Assembly: GCA_021323635.1 (NCBI GenBank)
Contig: JAJPKQ010000036.1
Coordinates: forward strand, 62,001-126,000
Length of the DNA stretch: 64,000 nt
Direction: 5' to 3'
Origin: a bacterium
GTDB taxonomy: Bacteria; Actinomycetota; Thermoleophilia; Solirubrobacterales; Solirubrobacteraceae
Shown: piece after piece, positions 15,193-41,786 of the stretch
Layout of the letters: the number at the start of each line of letters is the position of its first letter
Numbering within the stretch: the first letter of the stretch is position 1
Made by a program: the position numbers and the translations under genes
The notes under the pieces: generated by a model
The model's input: only the letters and a program-made list of their open reading frames with translations
Told to the model about the DNA's origin: nothing
Databases searched by the model: none

Positions 15193-16200
15193 ATGAACCG
15201 CAGAGAACAAGAGCAGACACACGAGCCTGAGGGCAAGGAGGAGCTTGAGATCGAGGCCTCCGAGCTCGACATCGACCCTGACGAGATCGATGGCGAGAGC
15301 GAGGAGCTGCAGGAGGCAGCCGAAGATGTCCTGCGCTCGCGCGAGGAGCTCGCGGTCTACCACAAGCACGACGAGGACTACATCCCCGAGTCGGTCGACC
15401 AGCTGCTGGCCCACTCCCGTCGCTACCCGCTGCTGACGCCCGATCAGGAGATCGAGCTTGCCAAGCGCATCGAGCGCGGAGACCTGCGCGCCAAGGAAGT
15501 GCTGATCAACTCCAACCTGCGCCTTGTCGCCTCCAACGCACGGCGCTACCAGAACCAGGGTCTTCCCCTCGCGGACCTCGTCCAGGAGGGCATGGTCGGC
15601 CTGATCCGCGCGGCGGAGAAGTTCGACTGGCGCAAGGGCTTCCGCTTCTCGACCTACGCCACGCTCTGGATCCGCCAGGCGATCCAGCGCGGGCTCGAGA
15701 ACTCGGCGCGCACGATCCGCCTGCCCGTCCACGTCGCCCAGCGCTCGCGCAAGATCGGGCGCATCGAACGCGAGCTCTCGGTGCGCCTTGGGCGCGACCC
15801 GACGATCGAGGAGATCGCCAAGGAGGCGGGCCTGACGATCGAAGAGATCGAAGAGGTCCACCACCAGCGCTCGGCGCTCGTCAGCCTCGACCAGCAGGTC
15901 GGCGAGGACGGCGACACGACGCTTGGCGAGCTCTTGCCCGCAGAGCAGGAAGCGCCGGAGAGCATCGTCTGGGACAACGAGCGCGACCGCATCGTGCACA
16001 AGGCGATCGCTCAGCTGCCCGAAACGGAGCGCACGGTGCTGGCGCTGCGCTTCGGCACCGGGCATGAGGAGCCCCAGACGCTCACGGCAATCGGCAAGCG
16101 CCTTGGCTTCTCGCCCGAGCGGGCCTCCCAGCTCGAGCAGCGGGCGCTCAAGCGGCTGGCCTCAATCCCCGAGCTTGCCGCCCTGCGCGAGGCCGCCTGA
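15193..16200 (+). CDS. RNA polymerase sigma-70 family factor (RpoD/SigA-like, short form)
   Basis: Primary-type sigma factor that directs RNA polymerase to -35/-10 promoters. At 335 aa it has an acidic N-terminal tail (1-65) in place of a full region 1.1. Region 1.2 follows (YIPESVDQLLAHSRRYPLLT). Region 2 (about 105-165) has the near-invariant GLIRAAEKFDWRKGFRFSTYA and WIRQAIQRGL. Region 3 has KIGRIERELSVRLGRDP. Region 4 ends in LGFSPERASQLEQRALKRLA. The region 4.2 helix-turn-helix is less canonical than RpoD (RASQLEQRALKRL versus the usual RIRQIEAKAL...), so it may be a group 2 factor rather than the essential one. The strong promoter upstream fits constitutive expression. Confidence 0.88.
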   Translation: MNRREQEQTHEPEGKEELEIEASELDIDPDEIDGESEELQEAAEDVLRSREELAVYHKHDEDYIPESVDQLLAHSRRYPLLTPDQEIELAKRIERGDLRAKEVLINSNLRLVASNARRYQNQGLPLADLVQEGMVGLIRAAEKFDWRKGFRFSTYATLWIRQAIQRGLENSARTIRLPVHVAQRSRKIGRIERELSVRLGRDPTIEEIAKEAGLTIEEIEEVHHQRSALVSLDQQVGEDGDTTLGELLPAEQEAPESIVWDNERDRIVHKAIAQLPETERTVLALRFGTGHEEPQTLTAIGKRLGFSPERASQLEQRALKRLASIPELAALREAA

Positions 16201-32705: not shown

Positions 32706-33704
32706 ATGGCGCAGCGGCAAGACAACGGCAACCATCACACGCGGGCGCAGCGCAGCGCGCAGAGCGGCGCTGCTGCGATCGAGGCCACCCTTTACACCGA
32801 CCCCGGCTGCCCCTGGGCCTACTCCGCAAATCCGGCGCTGCGCGTGCTCGAATGGCGCTACGGCAGCCAGCTCTCCTGGCGGGTGGTGATGATCGGGCTG
32901 ACCGAGCGCGCGGAGGAGTACACCGAGCGCGGCTTCACGCCCGCCCGCATGGCGCTTTCGGCGCTGCACTTTCGTCGCTACGGCATGCCCTTTGCGCTGG
33001 CGCCGAAGGAGCGCGTCTGCGCCACCGCGCGCGCCTGCCGAGCGGTGGTCGCCGCGCGTCTGCTCTACCCCGGCCGCGAGCTTGCGGTGCTGCGCGCGCT
33101 GGCGTTTGCGCAGTTCACCAGTGGCCTGCTGCTTGACGACGACGCGCAGCTCCAGCGCGTGCTCGAGCCGCTCGATCGGGTTGACGCCGCAGCGCTGATC
33201 GCCCAGCTTGACTCAGACGTGGTCACCGCCGCCTATGAGCAAGACCGCGCCGACAGCCGCAGCGCCGCCGGCAGCGCCGCGGAGCTGCAGGAGAAGACAG
33301 CCGCAAGCGCCGGCCAGGTGCGCTTCACCGCGCCGACCGTGCGCTTCAAGGGCGCGCACGGCGAGCTGCTTGCGGGCGGCTTCCAGCCGGTCGAGGCCTA
33401 TGACGTGCTGATCGCAAACCTCAACCCGGCTCTGCGGCGGCGCCCGCCGGCGGCAAGCGCGCTCGAGGCGCTGGCTGCCTTCCCTGAAGGGCTCTGCACG
33501 CAGGAGGTAGCCGCGATCATGGCTGTGGGCAATGAGCCCCCCGACCGCCGGAGCGCGGAGGCGCAGCTGATCGGCGCCTTGGCCGAGGGTGCCGCGCGCA
33601 GGCAGCCGCTGGGGGATGACGCGCTCTGGAGCTGCTCAGGCCAGGCGCAGGAGGGCGTGAGCCTCGCGGCCGGCGAGCCGCTCGCGGCCGCCCAGGGCGG
33701 GTAG
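32706..33704 (+). CDS. DsbA-family/FrnE-like thioredoxin-fold protein
   Basis: 332 aa. The segment IEATLYTDPGCPWAYSANPALRVL matches the DsbA/FrnE (2-hydroxychromene isomerase-like) active site, but only Cys35 is present (C-P-W-A), so it cannot form the usual CxxC disulfide. The helical insert and the APTVRFKGAHGELLAGGFQP segment (cis-Pro loop region) support the fold. No signal peptide is present, so it should be cytoplasmic. It probably acts as a monothiol reductase/isomerase or glutathione-dependent enzyme. The C-terminal 23 residues are antisense to apt (69-nt overlap). The start lies 5 nt after the preceding gene's stop. Confidence 0.75.
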   Translation: MAQRQDNGNHHTRAQRSAQSGAAAIEATLYTDPGCPWAYSANPALRVLEWRYGSQLSWRVVMIGLTERAEEYTERGFTPARMALSALHFRRYGMPFALAPKERVCATARACRAVVAARLLYPGRELAVLRALAFAQFTSGLLLDDDAQLQRVLEPLDRVDAAALIAQLDSDVVTAAYEQDRADSRSAAGSAAELQEKTAASAGQVRFTAPTVRFKGAHGELLAGGFQPVEAYDVLIANLNPALRRRPPAASALEALAAFPEGLCTQEVAAIMAVGNEPPDRRSAEAQLIGALAEGAARRQPLGDDALWSCSGQAQEGVSLAAGEPLAAAQGG

Positions 33705-34151
33705 CTCCACCAGGAAGGAGCAGCCGGCAACGGTCGCGTCGGCCGACTCGACCAGACGGCAGAGCGCCTCCGCGGTGCCGCCCGTCGCCAGCAGATCGTC
33801 GTGCACGAGCACGCGTGCCCCGGGGGTGATCGCGTCGGCGTGAAGCTCGAGGCCGTCGTTGCCGTACTCCAGCTCGTAGGAGACGGCGATCGTCCGGTGC
33901 GGGAGCTTCCCGGGCTTGCGTGCGAGCACGAACCCGGCCTGCAGCGCAAGCGCAAGCGCTGGCCCCAGCAGGAAGCCGCGCGCCTCGGCGGCGATCACGT
34001 AGTCGGGGCGCAGCGGCGCCGCCAGCTTCGCCAGCTGTGAGACGGCCTGGCGCAGCGCGTCGGCATCGGCAAGCAGCGGGGTGATGTCCTTGAAGTCGAT
34101 GCCTGCGCGCGGGAAGTCGGGAATCTCGCGAATCAGCCCGGCAAGATCCAT
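33636..34151 (-). CDS. apt: Adenine phosphoribosyltransferase
   Basis: Purine salvage: adenine + PRPP to AMP. At 171 aa it is of standard length. Motifs are IREIPDFPRAGIDFKDITPLL, VIAAEARGFLLGPALA and the PRPP loop RVLVHDDLLATGGTA. It starts 3 nt after the ftsR stop, so it may be read from the rsiG-garA-ftsR promoter. In many bacteria apt adjoins relA or secDF, which are not seen here. Its 3' end overlaps the convergent DsbA-like gene. Confidence 0.95.
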   Translation of the reverse strand: MDLAGLIREIPDFPRAGIDFKDITPLLADADALRQAVSQLAKLAAPLRPDYVIAAEARGFLLGPALALALQAGFVLARKPGKLPHRTIAVSYELEYGNDGLELHADAITPGARVLVHDDLLATGGTAEALCRLVESADATVAGCSFLVELPALGGRERLAGREAHALLRLA

Positions 34152-34154
34152 CGT

Positions 34155-34925
34155 CTATGCCAGCGAGCGACGCAGATCGGCGATCAGCAGCAGGTGCTTC
34201 AACCGTGCGGTGACCGCGGCAAGGTTTTCAAGCGTCTCCAGCGCCTCGCGGCGGCGCTCGCTGTTGCGCGAGCGCAGCGCCGGGGCGAGGATCTGCTCCA
34301 GCAGGCTCGCCTCGCGGTCTGCGGAGGAGCGGAAGAGGCGCAGATTGCGCCCGCCCACCCCGAAGCGCGCCAGCTCGGCGACGGCGCGCACGATCTCACG
34401 CTCGGTTTCATCGAAGTAGCGCCGGCCCGATCTGACCGTCCCCTTGATGATCCCGTATTCGACCAGCTCCTCCACCAGCGCCTGATCCACCTGGGTCTCC
34501 TCGGTGACGCTCTGCAGCGAGAAGAGCGGCCCGGCGGCGTCCTTGGGGTCGATGCTCGCGCGCAGGATGCGCCGCCCGTCGCTGCGTGCAGAGCCTTCTG
34601 GCAGCTCGCCGCCGCGCCCGGCGGCAAGCTCCTGGCGGATGACCCGCAGCGGCAGGAACTCATCGCGCTGCAGGCGCAGGATCGTGCGCAGGCGCTCGAC
34701 GTCTGAGGTGCTGTAGAGGCGGTATCCGCCGGGGGTGCGCCGCGGGCTGATCAGCTTCTGCTCCTCCAGGTAGCGGATCTTTGAGATCGAGAGGTCGGGA
34801 AACTCCTGAGCTAAGGTCTTGCAGACGGCGCCGATGCGCAGCGTCCGGCCGCCGGGACCGCTCTGCGCCCTGGCCTCGGCGCCGCCGGCAGTCGCCGCGT
34901 CGCTGTCGTTGGCGATCGTGCTCAC
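34155..34925 (-). CDS. ftsR: MerR-family regulator, FtsR-like
   Basis: 256-aa DNA-binding protein. The N-terminal MerR-type winged HTH (about 28-105) has GAVCKTLAQEFPDLSISKIR, YLEEQKLISPRRTPGGYRLY and DVERLRTILRLQRDEFLPLR. The C-terminal half (about 130-256) lacks metal-binding cysteines and has a second helical domain (LVEYGIIKGTVRSGRRYFDE, AELARFGVGGRNLRLFRSS). This layout next to an FHA protein gene matches FtsR of corynebacteria and streptomycetes, which activates ftsZ. Its ATG overlaps the FHA gene stop by 4 nt. The assignment rests on domain layout and synteny. Confidence 0.8.
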   Translation of the reverse strand: MSTIANDSDAATAGGAEARAQSGPGGRTLRIGAVCKTLAQEFPDLSISKIRYLEEQKLISPRRTPGGYRLYSTSDVERLRTILRLQRDEFLPLRVIRQELAAGRGGELPEGSARSDGRRILRASIDPKDAAGPLFSLQSVTEETQVDQALVEELVEYGIIKGTVRSGRRYFDETEREIVRAVAELARFGVGGRNLRLFRSSADREASLLEQILAPALRSRNSERRREALETLENLAAVTARLKHLLLIADLRRSLA

Positions 34926-35386
34926 CGGCCCAGAAAGGTCAGCTTGTACTTGCCGATCTGCAGCTCATCGCCCTCCCCGAGCAGCGCGGAGTCGATCCGC
35001 ACCCGGTTCACATAGGTGCCGTTGAGCGATCCGCAGTCCTGGATCCTCCACCCCTCCTCGCCGTGCAGGAGCTTGGCGTGATCGCGCGAGACCGTCACAT
35101 CGTCAAGGAAGATGTCGGATTCCGGGCGGCGTCCGATCCGCACCTCCTCCCCCGAGAGCGGGAAGCTCTCTCCCTCGCGCCCGCCGCCGGCGCGGATCAC
35201 CAGCGCCGGCCCGGCCGTCGCCCGCAGCCGTTGCGGCGCCAGCGGCTCAGCGGGATCCTCGTCGATGCGCCAGGCCGCTGTCGGCGGCTCTGCGGTGGTC
35301 GCCTGCGCAAGCGGCGCCCCGCACTGAGCGCAGAAGTTCGCCTCCTGCGGGTTGACAGCACCACAGCTAGCGCAGCGCTGCGACAC
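34922..35386 (-). CDS. FHA-domain protein, GarA/OdhI-like with zinc ribbon
   Basis: 154 aa. The N-terminal zinc ribbon (CASC near 5, CAQC near 19) is followed by a variable linker, then an FHA domain (about 60-150) with RIGRRPESDIFLDD, VSRDHAKL and GSLNGTYVNRVRI, the phosphothreonine-binding residues. GarA/OdhI proteins bind and inhibit 2-oxoglutarate metabolism enzymes under Ser/Thr kinase control. Here the N-terminal kinase-target ETTSV-type motif is replaced by the zinc ribbon, so the partner may differ. It is the middle gene of the rsiG-FHA-ftsR unit. Confidence 0.8.
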   Translation of the reverse strand: MSQRCASCGAVNPQEANFCAQCGAPLAQATTAEPPTAAWRIDEDPAEPLAPQRLRATAGPALVIRAGGGREGESFPLSGEEVRIGRRPESDIFLDDVTVSRDHAKLLHGEEGWRIQDCGSLNGTYVNRVRIDSALLGEGDELQIGKYKLTFLGR

Positions 35387-35416
35387 GCGCCTCGCGACCT
35401 CTCCGCGGCCGGACGC

Positions 35417-35677
35417 TCAGGCGCCCTCGGGCCGCTCCTCGGCGCCGCGCCCGGCCAGGATGTCGGTCAGACGCCTGACATCCTCGCCGGAGATCACCTC
35501 CTGGCCGCCGTCGTGTCGCTTGCGCAGACGGTTGACCAACTCGGCACGCAGGATGTCGATCTTCCCGTGGAGGATGCGCCTCTGGTAGGAGATCTCGTGC
35601 TCTTCCTTGGTCAGCTCGCCGATCAGCTCCTTGAGCTCGATGTCCGACAGCGACCCGAGATCCGGGAAATTGTCCAT
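35417..35677 (-). CDS. rsiG: RsiG-like c-di-GMP-responsive anti-sigma factor
   Basis: 86-aa coiled-coil protein starting MDNFPDLGSLSDIELKELI. The helix TKEEHEISYQRRILHGKIDI carries the RsiG c-di-GMP signature E-x3-S-x2-R-x3-Q-x3-D, as Glu26, Ser30, Arg33, His37 and Asp41: Gln is replaced by His. In streptomycetes RsiG holds sigma WhiG inactive when c-di-GMP is bound; single-motif RsiG proteins from deep actinobacteria act as dimers, and this short protein fits that form. Its partner sigma is not in the window. It is first in an operon with an FHA protein and FtsR-like regulator, behind a strong promoter. The frame extends upstream to 35740, but the family start is at 35677. Confidence 0.75.
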   Translation of the reverse strand: MDNFPDLGSLSDIELKELIGELTKEEHEISYQRRILHGKIDILRAELVNRLRKRHDGGQEVISGEDVRRLTDILAGRGAEERPEGA

Positions 35678-35745
35678 GGCGTCTTTAGCTCTCCTCTCGC
35701 GGATGACTGAAGGCAGCCTACGCGCCACCGCCCTCTGCACGGCGG

Positions 35746-35778
35746 GCGCCTGCCTGGAGGAAGTATAGAGGCAGGCGC
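35746..35778. promoter_or_regulatory. 10-bp inverted repeat framing the rsiG promoter -10
   Basis: Perfect arms GCGCCTGCCT (35746-35755) and AGGCAGGCGC (35769-35778) with a 13-base centre that contains the -10 box; the predicted start point lies in the left arm. A symmetrical regulator bound here would block initiation. No similar site was seen elsewhere in the window. Confidence 0.55.
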
Positions 35779-35790
35779 TGGCAACGTCAA
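35762..35790 (-). promoter_or_regulatory. Promoter TTGACG-N17-TATACT of rsiG operon
   Basis: Minus-strand -35 TTGACG (35785-35790), a 17-nt spacer and -10 TATACT (35762-35767); the leader to the rsiG ATG is about 75 nt. Confidence 0.75.
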
Positions 35791-35791
35791 G

Positions 35792-36289
35792 CTAAGGCTG
35801 AGCGTGAGGCGGCAGCGTCACGATCCCCAGCCAGTACTCGTCAATTGTGTAAACAACACGCATGAACTCCTTCAGCCGGACCGGCTTGCGGATGTAGGAG
35901 CTGACATGGTGCTTGTAGGCATAGAGGATGTCCTGGTCGGCTGCCGAGGTCGTGAGCACGACGACGGGGATCGCGCGCAGGTTGGGATCCCCTTTGAGCT
36001 CGAGCAGCACCTCACGCCCGTCCTTGCGCGGCAGGTTGAGATCAAGCAAGATCAGGTCGGGGCGGGGAGCATCGGCGAATGTGCCCTCGCGGCGCACGAA
36101 GGCAAGCGCCTGCTCGCCGTCGCGGGCAACGTGAACCTGGTTTGCGAACTTGCCCTCCGCAAGCGCCTGGCGCGTGAGCTCGATGTCGCCTGGAGAGTCC
36201 TCGACGAGCAGAATCTGCACTAGGTGCACCTGCGCTCCGGCGCCCTGGTCCGCCCAGGCAGGCGAGGCACGCTGTGGCGGCTCGCTCAT
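35792..36289 (-). CDS. Single-domain response regulator (Rcp1/CheY-like)
   Basis: 165 aa: an N-terminal tail (about 30 residues) then one receiver domain, ILLVEDSPGDIELTRQAL (acidic pocket), LILLDLNLPRKDG (phospho-acceptor Asp), VVLTTSA and YIRKPV (Lys). There is no output domain. Rcp1-like receivers pair with phytochrome-type or PAS-containing kinases. The ATG overlaps the kinase stop by 4 nt, so the preceding sensor kinase is the likely phosphodonor. It is the last gene of the three-gene signalling operon. The downstream target is unknown; a role in a phosphorelay is possible. Confidence 0.9.
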   Translation of the reverse strand: MSEPPQRASPAWADQGAGAQVHLVQILLVEDSPGDIELTRQALAEGKFANQVHVARDGEQALAFVRREGTFADAPRPDLILLDLNLPRKDGREVLLELKGDPNLRAIPVVVLTTSAADQDILYAYKHHVSSYIRKPVRLKEFMRVVYTIDEYWLGIVTLPPHAQP

Positions 36290-37476
36290 CGGCGCTCCCT
36301 GCCGTTGCCCGCCGCGCCGGCCAGAGCCGCTGCGAACGTGGCTGCGTCCGCGCCTGCGAGCGGCGGTCGCCCGCCCGCTGCTGCGGCGACCTCGTCGGGG
36401 ATTGTGAAGCTGAAGCGCGTGCCTCCGCCTGGCGCCGGCTCGCAGCGGATGCGGCCGCCGTGGCGCTCGACGATGCGCTTGACGATCGCCAGCCCGATGC
36501 CGGTGCCCGGCACCTCGCGGCCGTGCAGGCGTCGAAACATCATGAACACCTGCTCGGCATGGGCGGGGTCGATGCCGGGGCCGTTGTCGATCACATCGAA
36601 GCGCCACGCTGCGCCCTCCCGCTGGGAGGTGACCGACACCCGTGGGGGACCCTGCTCGCAGAACTTGATCGCGTTCCCGATCAGGTTCTGGAAGACCTGG
36701 CGCAGGAGCGTGGGCTCGGCGGTGATCACGGGCAGCTCGCCGGTCTCAAGCGTCGCCGCGCTTTCGGTGATGATCGCAAAGAGCGAGTCGGCCACTTCCC
36801 TGATCAGCGCGCCGACGTCCACGGCGCAGAGGGCGAGCTCGACGCGGCCGGCGCGTGAGTAGGCAAGCAGGTCGTCGATCACCGCCTGCATCCGCTCGAC
36901 GCCGCCGATCGTGAAGTCGATGAAGCGCCTGGCCTCCTCGTCGAGGCGCTCGCCGTAGCGCTCGCCAAGCAGCTCGACGAAGCCGGCGATCACGCGCAGC
37001 GGCTCGGAGAGATCGTGCGAGGCGGCGTAGGCGAACTGCTCCAGCTCTTCGTTGGAGCGCCGCAGCTCCGCTTCGGCACGCATGCGCGCCGTCACGTCGC
37101 GGGAGATCGACAGGAAGGCGGCGATCTCCTGATTGCGCCCGCGCACGGGCGTGATCGTCGACTCCACGTCGATCAGCTGCCCGTCCTTGCGCACCAGCCT
37201 GGCTACGTAGGGGTCGATGCTCTCTCCGGCGCGAAGGCGCTGGTTGAGCATCGCCCGCTCCTGCTCGCGCCCGTCAGCGGGAATCAGGATGGCCGCGCGT
37301 TGGCCGAGCATCTCATCTGCGCTGTAGCCGAAGAGCTGCTGCGCCCTCTGGGTCCAGGCGATCACGCGCCCCTCTAAATCCGTGCAGATCAGCGCGTCGG
37401 GACTTGACTGCGCAAGAGCGGTCAGGATCGCCTGCGGATCGCCAAGCAGCTCGCTCGCGGCGCGGAAGGGGCTCAC
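36286..37476 (-). CDS. PAS-domain sensor histidine kinase
   Basis: 396 aa, cytoplasmic. A PAS domain (about 15-135: SSPDALICTDLEGRVIAWTQ, FGYSADEMLGQ and a PAC segment FLSISRDVTARMRAE) is followed by HisKA with phospho-acceptor His in YAASHDLSEPLRVIAGF. HATPase_c has NLIGNAIKFCEQG (N box), DNGPGIDPAH (G1) and GTGIGLAIVKRIVERHGG (G2). The sequence resembles phytochrome-like/bacteriophytochrome kinases lacking the chromophore module. The start is GTG 37476, overlapping the stop of the REC-GGDEF-EAL gene. It probably phosphorylates the receiver protein encoded next and perhaps the REC domain of the preceding gene. Confidence 0.9.
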   Translation of the reverse strand: MSPFRAASELLGDPQAILTALAQSSPDALICTDLEGRVIAWTQRAQQLFGYSADEMLGQRAAILIPADGREQERAMLNQRLRAGESIDPYVARLVRKDGQLIDVESTITPVRGRNQEIAAFLSISRDVTARMRAEAELRRSNEELEQFAYAASHDLSEPLRVIAGFVELLGERYGERLDEEARRFIDFTIGGVERMQAVIDDLLAYSRAGRVELALCAVDVGALIREVADSLFAIITESAATLETGELPVITAEPTLLRQVFQNLIGNAIKFCEQGPPRVSVTSQREGAAWRFDVIDNGPGIDPAHAEQVFMMFRRLHGREVPGTGIGLAIVKRIVERHGGRIRCEPAPGGGTRFSFTIPDEVAAAAGGRPPLAGADAATFAAALAGAAGNGRERR

Positions 37477-39248
37477 CGCGAGGCCTCCCCGCCGCCCACC
37501 AGCTTGCTCACGCGCCGCGGCAGCTCGGCGGCGCTCAGCGCCCGTGCAAAGAGGAAGCCCTGGACGAGCTCGCACCCTGCGGCGCGGACGAGCGAGAGCT
37601 GCGCCTTGCTCTCGACGCCCTCCGCCACCGCGTGCAGGCTTGCGGCATGCACCACTCCCAGCACCGCGCCAAACATGCGCGCGAGGTCTTCGTCGTCGGC
37701 CGCCTGGCGCAGAAAGGCACGGTCGATCTTGACCGCCTGCACCGGCAGCGAGCGCAGCATCGAGAGCGAGGAGTAGCCGGTGCCGAAGTCATCGAGGGCG
37801 AGTGAGACGCCGAGCTCGCGCAGCTGCGAGAGCGCCCGCACGGTCGCTCGCTCATCGCCGGCGATCGACGTCTCGGTCACCTCCAGGCAGATGTTGCGCG
37901 CCGGCAGCCCGCTCTCCGCAAGGGTCTCCTCGAGCGCCCGCCGCGCCGCCTGGGAGGCAAGCTGCGCGCCTGAGAGGTTGACGGAGAGCAGCGTGCTTGG
38001 CGGCAGCACGCCCGTCTTGATCCACTCCGAGAGCTGGCGGGCGCCCTCCCTGAGGACCCAGGCGCCGATCGGCACGATCATGCCCGTTTCCTCGGCGATC
38101 GGCACGAACTCCTCGGGCGCCAGCAGCCCGCGCCCGCTGTGGCGCCAGCGCAGCAGCGCCTCGAGCGCGAAGAGCTGCGGCCGCTCACCGACCTGCACGA
38201 CCGGCTGGTAGTGGAGCTCGAGCTCGCCGCGCTCCAGCGCGCCGCGCAGCGCGTGCTCGAGCTCCAGCGCGGCAAGCGCCGCCTCGTGCAGGGCGGCCTC
38301 GAAGAGGGCGATGCCGCTGCCTTCGCGCTTGGCCCGATACATCGCCGAGTCGGCATGGCGCAGCAGCGCCTCAGCGCTCACCTCCGGGCCGCCGAAGGCG
38401 ATGCCGATGCTGGCGTCCACCGCGATCTCGCGGCCGCGCAGGACGATCGGGGCCGAGAGCACGCTGCGTGCCCGCTCGGCGACGTGGATCGCCTCATCCT
38501 GGCCGTGGAGCTCCTCGCAGAGGATGACGAACTCATCGCCGCCGAAGCGGGCGACGGTGTCGCTCGGCCTGACCATGCGCCGCAGGCGACCGGCGAGGGC
38601 GACCAGCAGCTCGTCGCCGGCCTCATGCCCGAGCGAGTCATTGATCGTCTTGAAGCGGTCGAGATCGATGAACATCAGCGCCAGCGCGCGGCGTTGGCGG
38701 TGGTAGCGGGCCAGCGCGCTCTCCAAGCGGTCGAGCAGGAGCATGCGGTTGGGGAGCCCCGTGAGCGCGTCGTGCAGCGCCTGGTGAGAGAGGCGCAGCT
38801 CGGAGCGCTTGCGCTCGATCGCATAGCGCATGCAGCGCACGAGCAGCTCGCCGTCTGCGCGTCGCTTGGCGATGAAGTCCTGCGCTCCCTGCTGGAGCGC
38901 GCTGATCGCAAGCTCCTCGTCCTCGTTGCCGGTCAGCACGATCACGGGCACGCTCGGGCTGAGCGCCTGCACGACCTCCAGCGCTTGCAGGCCATGGGCG
39001 TCGGGCAGCGAGAGGTCGAGCAGCACGCAGTCGATGTTGTGGGAGCGCAGCGCGCTGCGTGCCTCCGCGAGGCTTGCCGCGGCGTGCACGGAGAGCGCCC
39101 CGCCCAGCGCCTGGCGGAGCATCGCGTCCACCAGCGTGGCGTAGGCCGCGCTGTCCTCAACGACAAGCAGGCTGAGCACCTTGCGTGAGAAGCGTCCTTG
39201 GCCCTTTGGCTGCGGGGGTGTTGCTCTCAGGGCTGCACGGACTCTCAT
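37473..39248 (-). CDS. REC-GGDEF-EAL c-di-GMP signalling protein
   Basis: 591 aa. The receiver domain (about 25-145) has LLVVEDSAAYATLVDAML and the phospho-Asp in VLLDLSLPDAHG. GGDEF (about 165-325) has the intact RFGGDEF motif, with an RxxD site (RPSD) before it. EAL (about 340-585) has EALLRWRH, VNLSGAQLAS, EVTETSI, DDFGTGYSSL and KIDRAFL, the residues needed for metal and c-di-GMP binding. Both enzymatic halves look active, so net activity is probably set by phosphorylation. ATG 39248 was chosen; the frame is open further upstream, but that sequence is not protein-like. It is first in the operon with a PAS kinase and a receiver protein. Confidence 0.9.
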   Translation of the reverse strand: MRVRAALRATPPQPKGQGRFSRKVLSLLVVEDSAAYATLVDAMLRQALGGALSVHAAASLAEARSALRSHNIDCVLLDLSLPDAHGLQALEVVQALSPSVPVIVLTGNEDEELAISALQQGAQDFIAKRRADGELLVRCMRYAIERKRSELRLSHQALHDALTGLPNRMLLLDRLESALARYHRQRRALALMFIDLDRFKTINDSLGHEAGDELLVALAGRLRRMVRPSDTVARFGGDEFVILCEELHGQDEAIHVAERARSVLSAPIVLRGREIAVDASIGIAFGGPEVSAEALLRHADSAMYRAKREGSGIALFEAALHEAALAALELEHALRGALERGELELHYQPVVQVGERPQLFALEALLRWRHSGRGLLAPEEFVPIAEETGMIVPIGAWVLREGARQLSEWIKTGVLPPSTLLSVNLSGAQLASQAARRALEETLAESGLPARNICLEVTETSIAGDERATVRALSQLRELGVSLALDDFGTGYSSLSMLRSLPVQAVKIDRAFLRQAADDEDLARMFGAVLGVVHAASLHAVAEGVESKAQLSLVRAAGCELVQGFLFARALSAAELPRRVSKLVGGGEASR

Positions 39249-39411
39249 GGAAGCTTCGCGGCGGCGGTGCGCACGACAGGTGCTCGGGCGCAGCGCCGCG
39301 ACCCGATCGCCCAATTGTGCCACGACGTACATGAAAGCTGAAGTGCCCCTGCGGGCCGAGTGCATCGGCCCTCGCGGGCAGCCCGGCTGCCCGCCGAGGG
39401 CCGCTGCGCGC

Positions 39412-40056
39412 TCAGGCTCCAGTGGCGCGGCGCGCACCGGGAAGCTGGCGCAGCCCGCCGCGCAGATAGATGGCGCTTGCGCCATAGGCGAGCGCCAGCG
39501 CGCAGTAGAGGAAGCCGGTGCCGACGCTGCGCAGGCCCGCGAGCGCGAAGAAGACCGCCGCCCCGGCCCCGGCGAGCGCCGCGCGGCCGAGCACGTTGAC
39601 CTTCAGAGCGATACCGCGACGCTGGGCGAGCCGTCCGAGCGCGATCATCGCAAGCTCGCGCGCTGCCAGCAGCGCCAGCGGGGCCAGCGGCAGCAGCGAC
39701 CAGCGCAGGCAGACGGCGACCGCCGCTAGCACGAGCAGGCGATCGGCAAGCGGGTCCACAAGCGCGCCCAGGCGGCTGTACTGCCCGGTGGCGCGCGCAA
39801 GCGCGCCGTCGGCGATGTCCGAGAAGGCGATCAGCGAGAAGAGGATCAGCGCGAGCGTCGACCGCGTGGGGTCTTCAAGCAGGTAGAGGGCACAGAAGGC
39901 AGGGATGCCGAGCAGACGCGCGAATGTGATTAGGTTGGGCAGCGTGAGCGGCCGCAGCGGCGCCTGCGCTCCCGCCGTGCCCGATGGCTCCTCCCCCCGC
40001 CTGATGCCGAGCAGGAGCGCCCATCGCTGCAGCGCGCTCAGGGAGCCTCCTGCCAA
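39412..40056 (-). CDS. CDP-alcohol phosphatidyltransferase (PgsA-type)
   Basis: 214-aa integral membrane enzyme that transfers a phosphatidyl group from CDP-diacylglycerol to an alcohol such as glycerol-3-phosphate. The family motif D-x2-DG-x2-AR-x8-G-x3-D-x3-D is complete in DIADGALARATGQYSRLG followed by ALVDPLADR. There are four to five further TM segments. The start overlaps the proS 3' end by 19 nt. It is close to PgsA in layout, but the acceptor (glycerol-P, inositol-P or another) cannot be settled. It uses the CDP-DAG made by the CdsA encoded at 47798. Confidence 0.85.
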   Translation of the reverse strand: MAGGSLSALQRWALLLGIRRGEEPSGTAGAQAPLRPLTLPNLITFARLLGIPAFCALYLLEDPTRSTLALILFSLIAFSDIADGALARATGQYSRLGALVDPLADRLLVLAAVAVCLRWSLLPLAPLALLAARELAMIALGRLAQRRGIALKVNVLGRAALAGAGAAVFFALAGLRSVGTGFLYCALALAYGASAIYLRGGLRQLPGARRATGA

Positions 40057-41786
40057 CGCTCGCGCAGCGCCCGCACGAGCTCCTCGCCCTCCAGGCTCAG
40101 CGGCAGCGGCGCGCCCTCGAGCAGGCCGCGGCGCACCTGGACCTCGACCTCGCCGCGCTGAAGCGCTCTGCGACCGACCGTCAGCCGCAGCGGGCAGCCG
40201 AGCAGCTCGGCCACGGTCAGCTTCTCGCCGGTGCCGAGGTCGCGGTCGTCGTAGAGGACGTCGATGTGCTCGGCGCGCAGGGCCTCGCTGGCGCAGATGC
40301 GCTCATAGAGATCCTCGGCGGCGGCGCGCTCCTCGCTGCCTGGGCGCCCGAGCGAGACGAGGTGGATCGCAAAGGGTGCGAGCGCGCGCGGCCAGGAGAT
40401 GCCACGCTCGTCGGCAAGCTGCTCGACCGCGGCCGCCGCGATTCGCGCCGGGCCGATGCCGTAGGAGGCCATCCACAGCGGCTTGGCGCGGCCGTCCTCA
40501 TCGAGGTAGCTTGCCTCCAGCGGGGTGGAGTAGCGCACACCGAGCTTGAAGATGTTGGCGACCTCGATCGCGCGCTCGATCACGATCGGGTGGCCGGCGA
40601 CGGTGTCGCCCTCCTGCACCATCCTGATGTCGGCGCTGATGTGCTGAAAGTCGCGGCCGGGTCGCACGCCGCGCAGGTGCGCGCCGGGCCGGTTTGCGCC
40701 CGTGACGTAGCATCCCGCAGGCACCGCTTGATCGAGCACGATCCTGACATCGCCGCTCCTGGGATCGACCGGCCCGATGAAGCCGACCGGCCCGATCTGC
40801 GCCTCGATCTCCTCGGGGCGAGCGGGACGCACCGGCCCGCCGAGCGCGCGCGCGAGCTTGACCTCGTTGACGCGGTGGTCGCCGCGCACGAGCGCAAGCC
40901 AGAGCGCCGGACCCTCCAGAGCGCCCTCGCCCGCTGCCGCGCGCACGACCGGGTAGGCCTTGAGCAGCGCGCTCGGATGCACGCCGAGCAGCTGCGCGAC
41001 CTCCTCGACGCGGGTCAGGCCGGGGGTCGACACCTCCTCGGGCGCCGCGCGCTCGGCGTCCGGGGAGGCCGGGCGCGCCTGGGCGCTTGCAACCTCGACA
41101 TTCGCGGCATAGCCCGGTGCGAGGGCGATCTCGTTCTCGCCCGCTGCGCACGGTGCCATGTACTCGTGTGCGCCGAGCCCGCCCATCATCCCGACATCGG
41201 ACTGCACGCGGTACCAGCGCAGCCCTGTGCGCTCCATGATGCGGTCGTAGGCGCCCACGAAGCGCTCGTAGGTCGAGTTCATCCCCGCTTCGTCGCGGTC
41301 GAAGGAATAGGCGTCCTTCATGATGAACTCGCGCGTGCGCAGCACTCCGGCGCGCGGGCGCGGCTCATCGCGCTCCTTGACCTGGAAGTGGTAGAGGGAA
41401 AGCGGCAGGTCGCGGTAGGAGCGGATCAGCTGCGCGGCGTGGTAGGTGACGATCTCCTCGTGGGTCATCGCCAGCACCAGCTCCGCCTCGCGGCGATCGC
41501 GCAGCTTGAAGAGCTCGGGGATGTCGTAGCGGCCGGTGCGCCGCCAGGGCTCCGCGGGCCCGAGCACGGGCATCAGCACCTCCTGGGCGCCGATCGCCTC
41601 CATCTCGGCGCGGATCAGCGCCTCGATCTTGCGATGCACGCGCCAGCCGGCGGGCAGCCACGTCCACAGCCCCGCGCCCAGCTGGCGCACCAAGCCGGCG
41701 CGCACCATCAGGCGGTGGGAGAGCGCCTCGGCGTCGGCCGGCGCCTCACGCTCGGTGGGCAGCAGATATTCAGAGAGCCTTGTCAT
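40038..41786 (-). CDS. proS: Prolyl-tRNA synthetase, bacterial type
   Basis: Class II synthetase charging tRNA-Pro, 582 aa. The catalytic domain has motif 1 (QLGAGLWTWLPAGWRVHRKI), motif 2 (FQVKERDEPRPRAGVLRTRE then FIMKDAYSFD) and motif 3 (ASYGIGPARIAAAAVEQ). The INS editing domain (about 245-400) that clears Ala-tRNA-Pro lies between motifs 2 and 3. The C-terminal anticodon domain runs from about 470 (HLVSLGRPGSEE, DVLYDDRDLGTGEKL). ATG 41786 begins the conserved MTRLSEYLLPT; the longer upstream frame is not protein-like. It is transcribed with pgsA. Confidence 0.95.
   Translation of the reverse strand: MTRLSEYLLPTEREAPADAEALSHRLMVRAGLVRQLGAGLWTWLPAGWRVHRKIEALIRAEMEAIGAQEVLMPVLGPAEPWRRTGRYDIPELFKLRDRREAELVLAMTHEEIVTYHAAQLIRSYRDLPLSLYHFQVKERDEPRPRAGVLRTREFIMKDAYSFDRDEAGMNSTYERFVGAYDRIMERTGLRWYRVQSDVGMMGGLGAHEYMAPCAAGENEIALAPGYAANVEVASAQARPASPDAERAAPEEVSTPGLTRVEEVAQLLGVHPSALLKAYPVVRAAAGEGALEGPALWLALVRGDHRVNEVKLARALGGPVRPARPEEIEAQIGPVGFIGPVDPRSGDVRIVLDQAVPAGCYVTGANRPGAHLRGVRPGRDFQHISADIRMVQEGDTVAGHPIVIERAIEVANIFKLGVRYSTPLEASYLDEDGRAKPLWMASYGIGPARIAAAAVEQLADERGISWPRALAPFAIHLVSLGRPGSEERAAAEDLYERICASEALRAEHIDVLYDDRDLGTGEKLTVAELLGCPLRLTVGRRALQRGEVEVQVRRGLLEGAPLPLSLEGEELVRALRERWQEAP

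What the first reader, a model, noticed from the sequence alone, without database searches (positions are those of the whole stretch)
35417..35677. RsiG-like protein with His in place of Gln in the c-di-GMP motif, amid many c-di-GMP enzymes
E26-x3-S30-x2-R33-x3-H37-x3-D41 differs from the described E-x3-S-x2-R-x3-Q-x3-D signature at one ligand-contacting position. Within 20 kb lie three GGDEF proteins, all with intact RxxD sites. This suggests a local c-di-GMP to sigma-factor circuit, perhaps with changed affinity or specificity; the cognate sigma is not in the window.
Basis: partly seen in the sequence, partly recalled or inferred. Interest (0 to 1): 0.75.

Follow-up and report, generated by a model that had tools for sequence, protein, structure and literature searches.

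The report
Ordinary c-di-GMP anti-sigma factor RsiG
The gene encodes a normal member of a known bacterial switch protein (RsiG) that uses the signal molecule c-di-GMP to hold back the sigma factor WhiG; the "odd" histidine is the normal residue in this bacterial class, although the gene's fixed place in front of a metabolic and a cell-division regulator seems not to have been described.

Summary
In detail: window 35417-35677 (minus strand) encodes an 86-aa RsiG (PF22802, 68 bits) with E26-S30-R33-H37-D41. The reading of His37 is not. Histidine here is the class norm: 80 of 80 nearest named relatives have it, and most distant ones. A published study measured c-di-GMP binding by the His-bearing RsiG of Conexibacter woesei: about two-fold weaker than a Gln-bearing RsiG, still specific. 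The cognate sigma exists: a WhiG-equivalog gene on another contig keeps its c-di-GMP-contacting K/G/R; the genome's second sigma-28 factor, in a flagellar cluster, lacks K and G. RsiG and WhiG co-occur across the class (Fisher p about 1e-35). The nearby c-di-GMP enzymes are not a conserved part, and rsiG has its own conserved sigma-70-type promoter. What is conserved is an operon rsiG-garA-like FHA-ftsR(-apt), seen at nearly every single-motif rsiG locus examined with enough flank. Sigma-28-type promoters sit 5-8 nt before some GGDEF genes, in line with the regulon proposed for Rubrobacter. Verdict: new member of a known kind, with an apparently undescribed gene neighbourhood. Binding, dimerisation and sigma capture are inferred, not shown.

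The parts
35417..35677 (-). [quoted passage not shown]
35762..35790 (-). predicted sigma-70-type promoter TTGACG-N17-TATACT of rsiG
   Evidence: Only promoter-like site in 33500-40500 (shuffles 0.2 +/- 0.4); TTGACCC-N16-18-TATACT type sites in front of rsiG in relatives
34922..35386 (-). zinc-ribbon plus FHA protein, OdhI/GarA-like (below the OdhI equivalog cut-off), second gene of the operon
   Evidence: adjacency
34155..34925 (-). ftsR: MerR-family regulator, third gene of the operon (overlaps the FHA gene by 4 bases)
   Evidence: NF050798 FtsR 225.9 bits, cut-off 150
33636..34151 (-). apt: adenine phosphoribosyltransferase, probable fourth gene
   Evidence: TIGR01090 193.8 bits, cut-off 185.85

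Best explanation
This is an ordinary single-motif RsiG of the class Thermoleophilia. By analogy with the solved Rubrobacter complex, two copies form an antiparallel coiled coil that binds a c-di-GMP dimer through the two E-S-R-H-D motifs, His37 stacking on guanine in place of Gln. The armed dimer sequesters WhiG, encoded on another contig of the genome. When c-di-GMP falls, WhiG is released and transcribes from sigma-28-type promoters, probably including c-di-GMP-enzyme and type IV pilus genes. rsiG is transcribed from its own sigma-70-type promoter as first gene of an rsiG-garA-ftsR(-apt) operon. Shown by computation: family, motif, partner gene, co-occurrence, conserved gene order, promoter-like sites. 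Inferred: dimerisation, binding, sigma capture, co-transcription, regulon.
For: Pfam RsiG; sequence match to solved RsiG chains. Motif E/S/R/D invariant and H nearly invariant in 26 class members; His in 80/80 named relatives. One WhiG equivalog, NF004935 349.6 bits vs cut-off 343, keeps the K-G-R residues that contact c-di-GMP in solved WhiG; the flagellar-cluster paralogue has R-Y-R (contacts from PMC8325347). RsiG and WhiG/FliA co-occur in 219 genomes, both absent in 55, discordant in 25. Perfect sigma-28 promoter matches: 451 vs 114 for the reversed-pattern control in genomes with both, 16 vs 16 in genomes with neither. 4 of 26 GGDEF genes have a site of at least 10/12, shuffled motifs 0.01 on average. 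rsiG-FHA-FtsR order in 79/79 loci with room and in other families.
Against: No binding, dimerisation or expression data for this protein. WhiG lies on a different contig, so no linkage supports the pairing. The genome also has a FliA-like sigma with presumably similar promoter preference, so individual promoters cannot be assigned to WhiG. NCBIfam has no RsiG model hit. 16 genomes have RsiG without a WhiG match and 9 the reverse; some are incomplete assemblies.
Confidence: 0.87

Rival explanations
1. His37 changes ligand affinity or specificity, making a distinct sensor.
For: His replaces a ligand-contacting Gln. The one His-bearing homologue measured binds about two-fold more weakly (25 vs 12 uM alone; 1.7 vs 0.9 uM with WhiG; PMC8325347).
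Against: His is the norm in the class and frequent in motif 1 of twin-motif RsiGs; the measured His protein still rejects c-di-AMP. That comparison is between two species, not a point mutant.
Confidence: 0.07
2. rsiG and the upstream REC-GGDEF-EAL, PAS histidine kinase and REC genes form one local c-di-GMP signalling operon.
For: All lie on the minus strand in a row, 33636-39485.
Against: A sigma-70-type promoter stands between them and rsiG, of a type conserved in relatives. Tblastn of these three proteins finds none of them next to rsiG in congeners L215-L217 (L218 has less upstream sequence). GGDEF ORFs lie within 4 kb upstream in only 2 of 74 relatives, both on the opposite strand.
Confidence: 0.08
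3. RsiG restrains the FliA-like sigma (C30) instead of, or as well as, WhiG.
For: Both sigmas are FliA/WhiG family and score over its cut-off.
Against: The FliA-like copy has R and Y in place of the c-di-GMP-contacting K and G and lies beside a flagellar rod gene. Of five congeners with RsiG, three (G186, G214, G244) carry a single sigma-28 gene, with scores like WhiG.
Confidence: 0.07

Closest known systems
Single-motif RsiG of Conexibacter woesei, Patulibacter medicamentivorans and Thermoleophilum album (Schumacher et al. 2021, PMC8325347)
   Same: Short single-motif protein of Thermoleophilia; C. woesei RsiG has the same E-S-R-H-D motif and binds c-di-GMP and WhiG. The Patulibacter protein, with the same motif, is locus L142.
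   Different: No difference of kind found. The main text of that paper mentions neither FHA nor MerR neighbours.
Rubrobacter radiotolerans (RsiG)2-(c-di-GMP)2-WhiG, PDB 7lq4
   Same: Homologous sequence and motif; proposed regulon of pilus and c-di-GMP-enzyme genes.
   Different: Gln instead of His; the Rubrobacter protein is longer.
Streptomyces venezuelae RsiG, PDB 6pfj
   Same: Same family and motif chemistry.
   Different: Two motifs in one chain, monomeric; the Streptomyces-like twin-motif loci examined lack the FHA and FtsR neighbours.
odhI/garA-ftsR cluster of Actinobacteria (PMC6683498)
   Same: FHA gene directly followed by ftsR.
   Different: Here rsiG precedes it; that paper says the region upstream of odhI varies.

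Membership tests
RsiG (PF22802) | Profile match over the curated cut-off | tested here: met
   68.2 bits vs 27
RsiG (PF22802) | E(x3)S(x2)R(x3)[Q/H](x3)D c-di-GMP motif | tested here: met
   E26 S30 R33 H37 D41; His accepted in PMC8325347
Single-motif RsiG | One motif only, short protein | tested here: met
   86 aa, one motif
Single-motif RsiG | WhiG homologue in the genome | tested here: met
   C21:23846-24526, NF004935 349.6 vs 343
Single-motif RsiG | Antiparallel homodimer | not testable with these tools
   Needs a complex structure or a two-hybrid assay
Single-motif RsiG | Binds c-di-GMP and, with it, WhiG | not testable with these tools
   Needs biochemistry; shown for C. woesei RsiG (PMC8325347)

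The most novel reading that the evidence does not exclude
The conserved rsiG-garA-ftsR(-apt) operon is a functional unit in which one transcript, and perhaps protein contacts, couples the c-di-GMP/WhiG switch to central metabolism (GarA-like FHA protein) and cell division (FtsR). This would be the ancestral arrangement, lost in the twin-motif lineages examined outside Thermoleophilia.
Probability: 0.3. Interest if true: 0.5.

Novelty: new member of a known kind. Interest (0 to 1): 0.25.

Why it matters
The given finding is ordinary: it adds one member to a described family, and its unusual residue has already been measured in a close relative. The wider survey extends the known switch: RsiG in 235 of 299 genomes sampled in the class, a sigma-28-type promoter whose excess follows the presence of RsiG and WhiG, and a rsiG-garA-ftsR gene order that I found in no paper of the library. 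If that operon is functional it would link c-di-GMP-controlled sigma release to metabolic and division control, which is directly testable.

Tried and rejected
Rejected: His37 as a lineage-specific novelty. Rejected: local operon with the GGDEF-EAL, kinase and receiver genes. Rejected: the window's own sigma-70 gene as partner. The first motif regular expression had a wrong spacing and returned nothing, corrected. The window's three GGDEF genes themselves have no good sigma-28 site (6-7 of 12). A structure prediction was not run: a single helix would not test dimerisation.

Full report
Observation. The minus strand of 35417-35677 encodes the 86-aa protein as described, with E26, S30, R33, H37 and D41. 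It matches Pfam RsiG at 68.2 bits, cut-off 27, and solved RsiG chains 6pfj and 7lq4. The three GGDEF ORFs within 20 kb have intact RxxD sites. The window holds no WhiG; its sigma-70 gene at 15193-16200 is a different type.

The histidine. Schumacher et al. 2021 (PMC8325347) already describe single-motif RsiGs in Rubrobacter and Thermoleophilia. They report that Gln is frequently replaced by His in motif 1 of the homologues and that His can make the same stacking contact. The C. woesei RsiG, with His, bound c-di-GMP with Kd 25 uM alone and 1.7 uM with WhiG, against 12 and 0.9 uM for the Gln-bearing R. radiotolerans protein, and neither bound c-di-AMP. In my survey, His is present in 80 of 80 nearest named loci (one of the two search peptides ended in H, the other did not contain the position). 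Of loci L010-L039, two (L011, L025) have Gln and the other 28 His. In a sample across further families most have His, with Gln in L182 and L184. His37 is therefore a class trait, not a variant of this genome.

The partner. The genome has two genes over the FliA_WhiG cut-off. The C21 gene follows a XerC/D-type recombinase gene (named from its sequence, not by a profile) and reaches the WhiG equivalog cut-off, 349.6 vs 343 bits; the C30 gene does not, 223.9 bits, and lies next to what reads as a flagellar rod gene. WhiG residues K57, G61 and R62 of S. venezuelae, which contact c-di-GMP, align with K, G and R in the C21 protein and with R, Y and R in the C30 protein. In 299 genomes of the class, 219 have both RsiG and a FliA/WhiG match, 16 only RsiG, 9 only the sigma, 55 neither (Fisher p 8e-36, not corrected for phylogeny).

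The neighbourhood. Downstream of rsiG, on the same strand and tightly packed, lie a zinc-ribbon FHA gene, ftsR (NF050798, 225.9 bits, cut-off 150) and apt. The FHA protein is OdhI/GarA-like but below the OdhI cut-off. FHA and MerR genes follow rsiG in 79 of 80 named loci, the 80th having only 172 bases of flank. In L010-L039 and L166-L192 all 57 loci have the FHA gene and 54 a MerR match; L193 and L194 (family f5, genus g77) gave no match at all for RsiG or its neighbours, and L195 is at a contig end. The order also holds in f23, but not in the twin-motif loci outside Thermoleophilia examined. No paper in the library contains both RsiG and FtsR; the FtsR paper describes odhI/garA-ftsR as conserved and the upstream region as variable. 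I claim only that this arrangement was not found in the library.

The upstream c-di-GMP genes. A REC-GGDEF-EAL gene, a PAS histidine kinase and a REC gene lie upstream on the same strand. The only promoter-like site in the 7-kb region stands between them and rsiG, TTGACG-N17-TATACT at 35790-35762. Upstream regions of relatives carry good matches more often than shuffled ones, typically TTGACCC-N16-18-TATACT. Congeners L215-L217 lack those neighbours. So a local circuit is not supported, although any c-di-GMP enzyme can act on RsiG through the shared pool.

The regulon. For Rubrobacter the switch was proposed to control type IV pili and c-di-GMP enzymes. Here, 4 of 26 GGDEF genes have a site matching at least 10 of 12 positions of TAAA-N14-16-GCCGATAA at 4-12 nt before an in-frame start, against a mean of 0.01 for 300 shuffled motifs. 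Among the best other genes are a probable prepilin peptidase on the pilus contig and a probable motA (named from their first residues, not by a profile). Class-wide, exact TAAA-N14-16-GCCGATA sites number 451 against 114 for the reversed pattern in genomes with both proteins, and 16 against 16 in genomes with neither. In other genomes several sites end 8-9 nt before a start codon, and one lies 17 nt before a gene whose start resembles PilT. Which of the two sigmas reads a given site in this genome is open.

Conclusion. A new member of a known kind, with a known residue. The rsiG-garA-ftsR gene order and the promoter data are additions worth recording. Organism: Solirubrobacterales, probably Solirubrobacteraceae, inferred from the nearest named relatives.

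Noticed in passing
L186 (G015 C78:11606-12046), L189 (G181 C35:31481-31942): RsiG proteins with two motifs in one chain in family f10 of Thermoleophilia, at the rsiG-garA-ftsR locus; read by eye, both motifs fit E-x3-S-x2-R-x3-H-x3-D in both proteins. The 2021 paper reported only single-motif RsiGs in this class.
   Followed up: partly
L163, L164, L270, L272-L274, L276, L280: Sigma-28-type promoter sites ending about 7-9 nt before the start codon, which suggests near-leaderless transcripts.
   Followed up: partly
L156:13006-15612: The pilus assembly ATPase PilB carries an MshEN domain, a domain known to bind c-di-GMP in some relatives, so c-di-GMP may act on pili at a second level.
   Followed up: no
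window 35792-39485 minus: REC-GGDEF-EAL, PAS histidine kinase and REC genes in a row, a possible two-component c-di-GMP module not found next to rsiG in the congeners examined.
   Followed up: partly
G083 and G125 (L193, L194): RsiG profile matches in genus g77 of family f5 that are weak, lie in longer frames and lack the FHA and FtsR neighbours.
   Followed up: no
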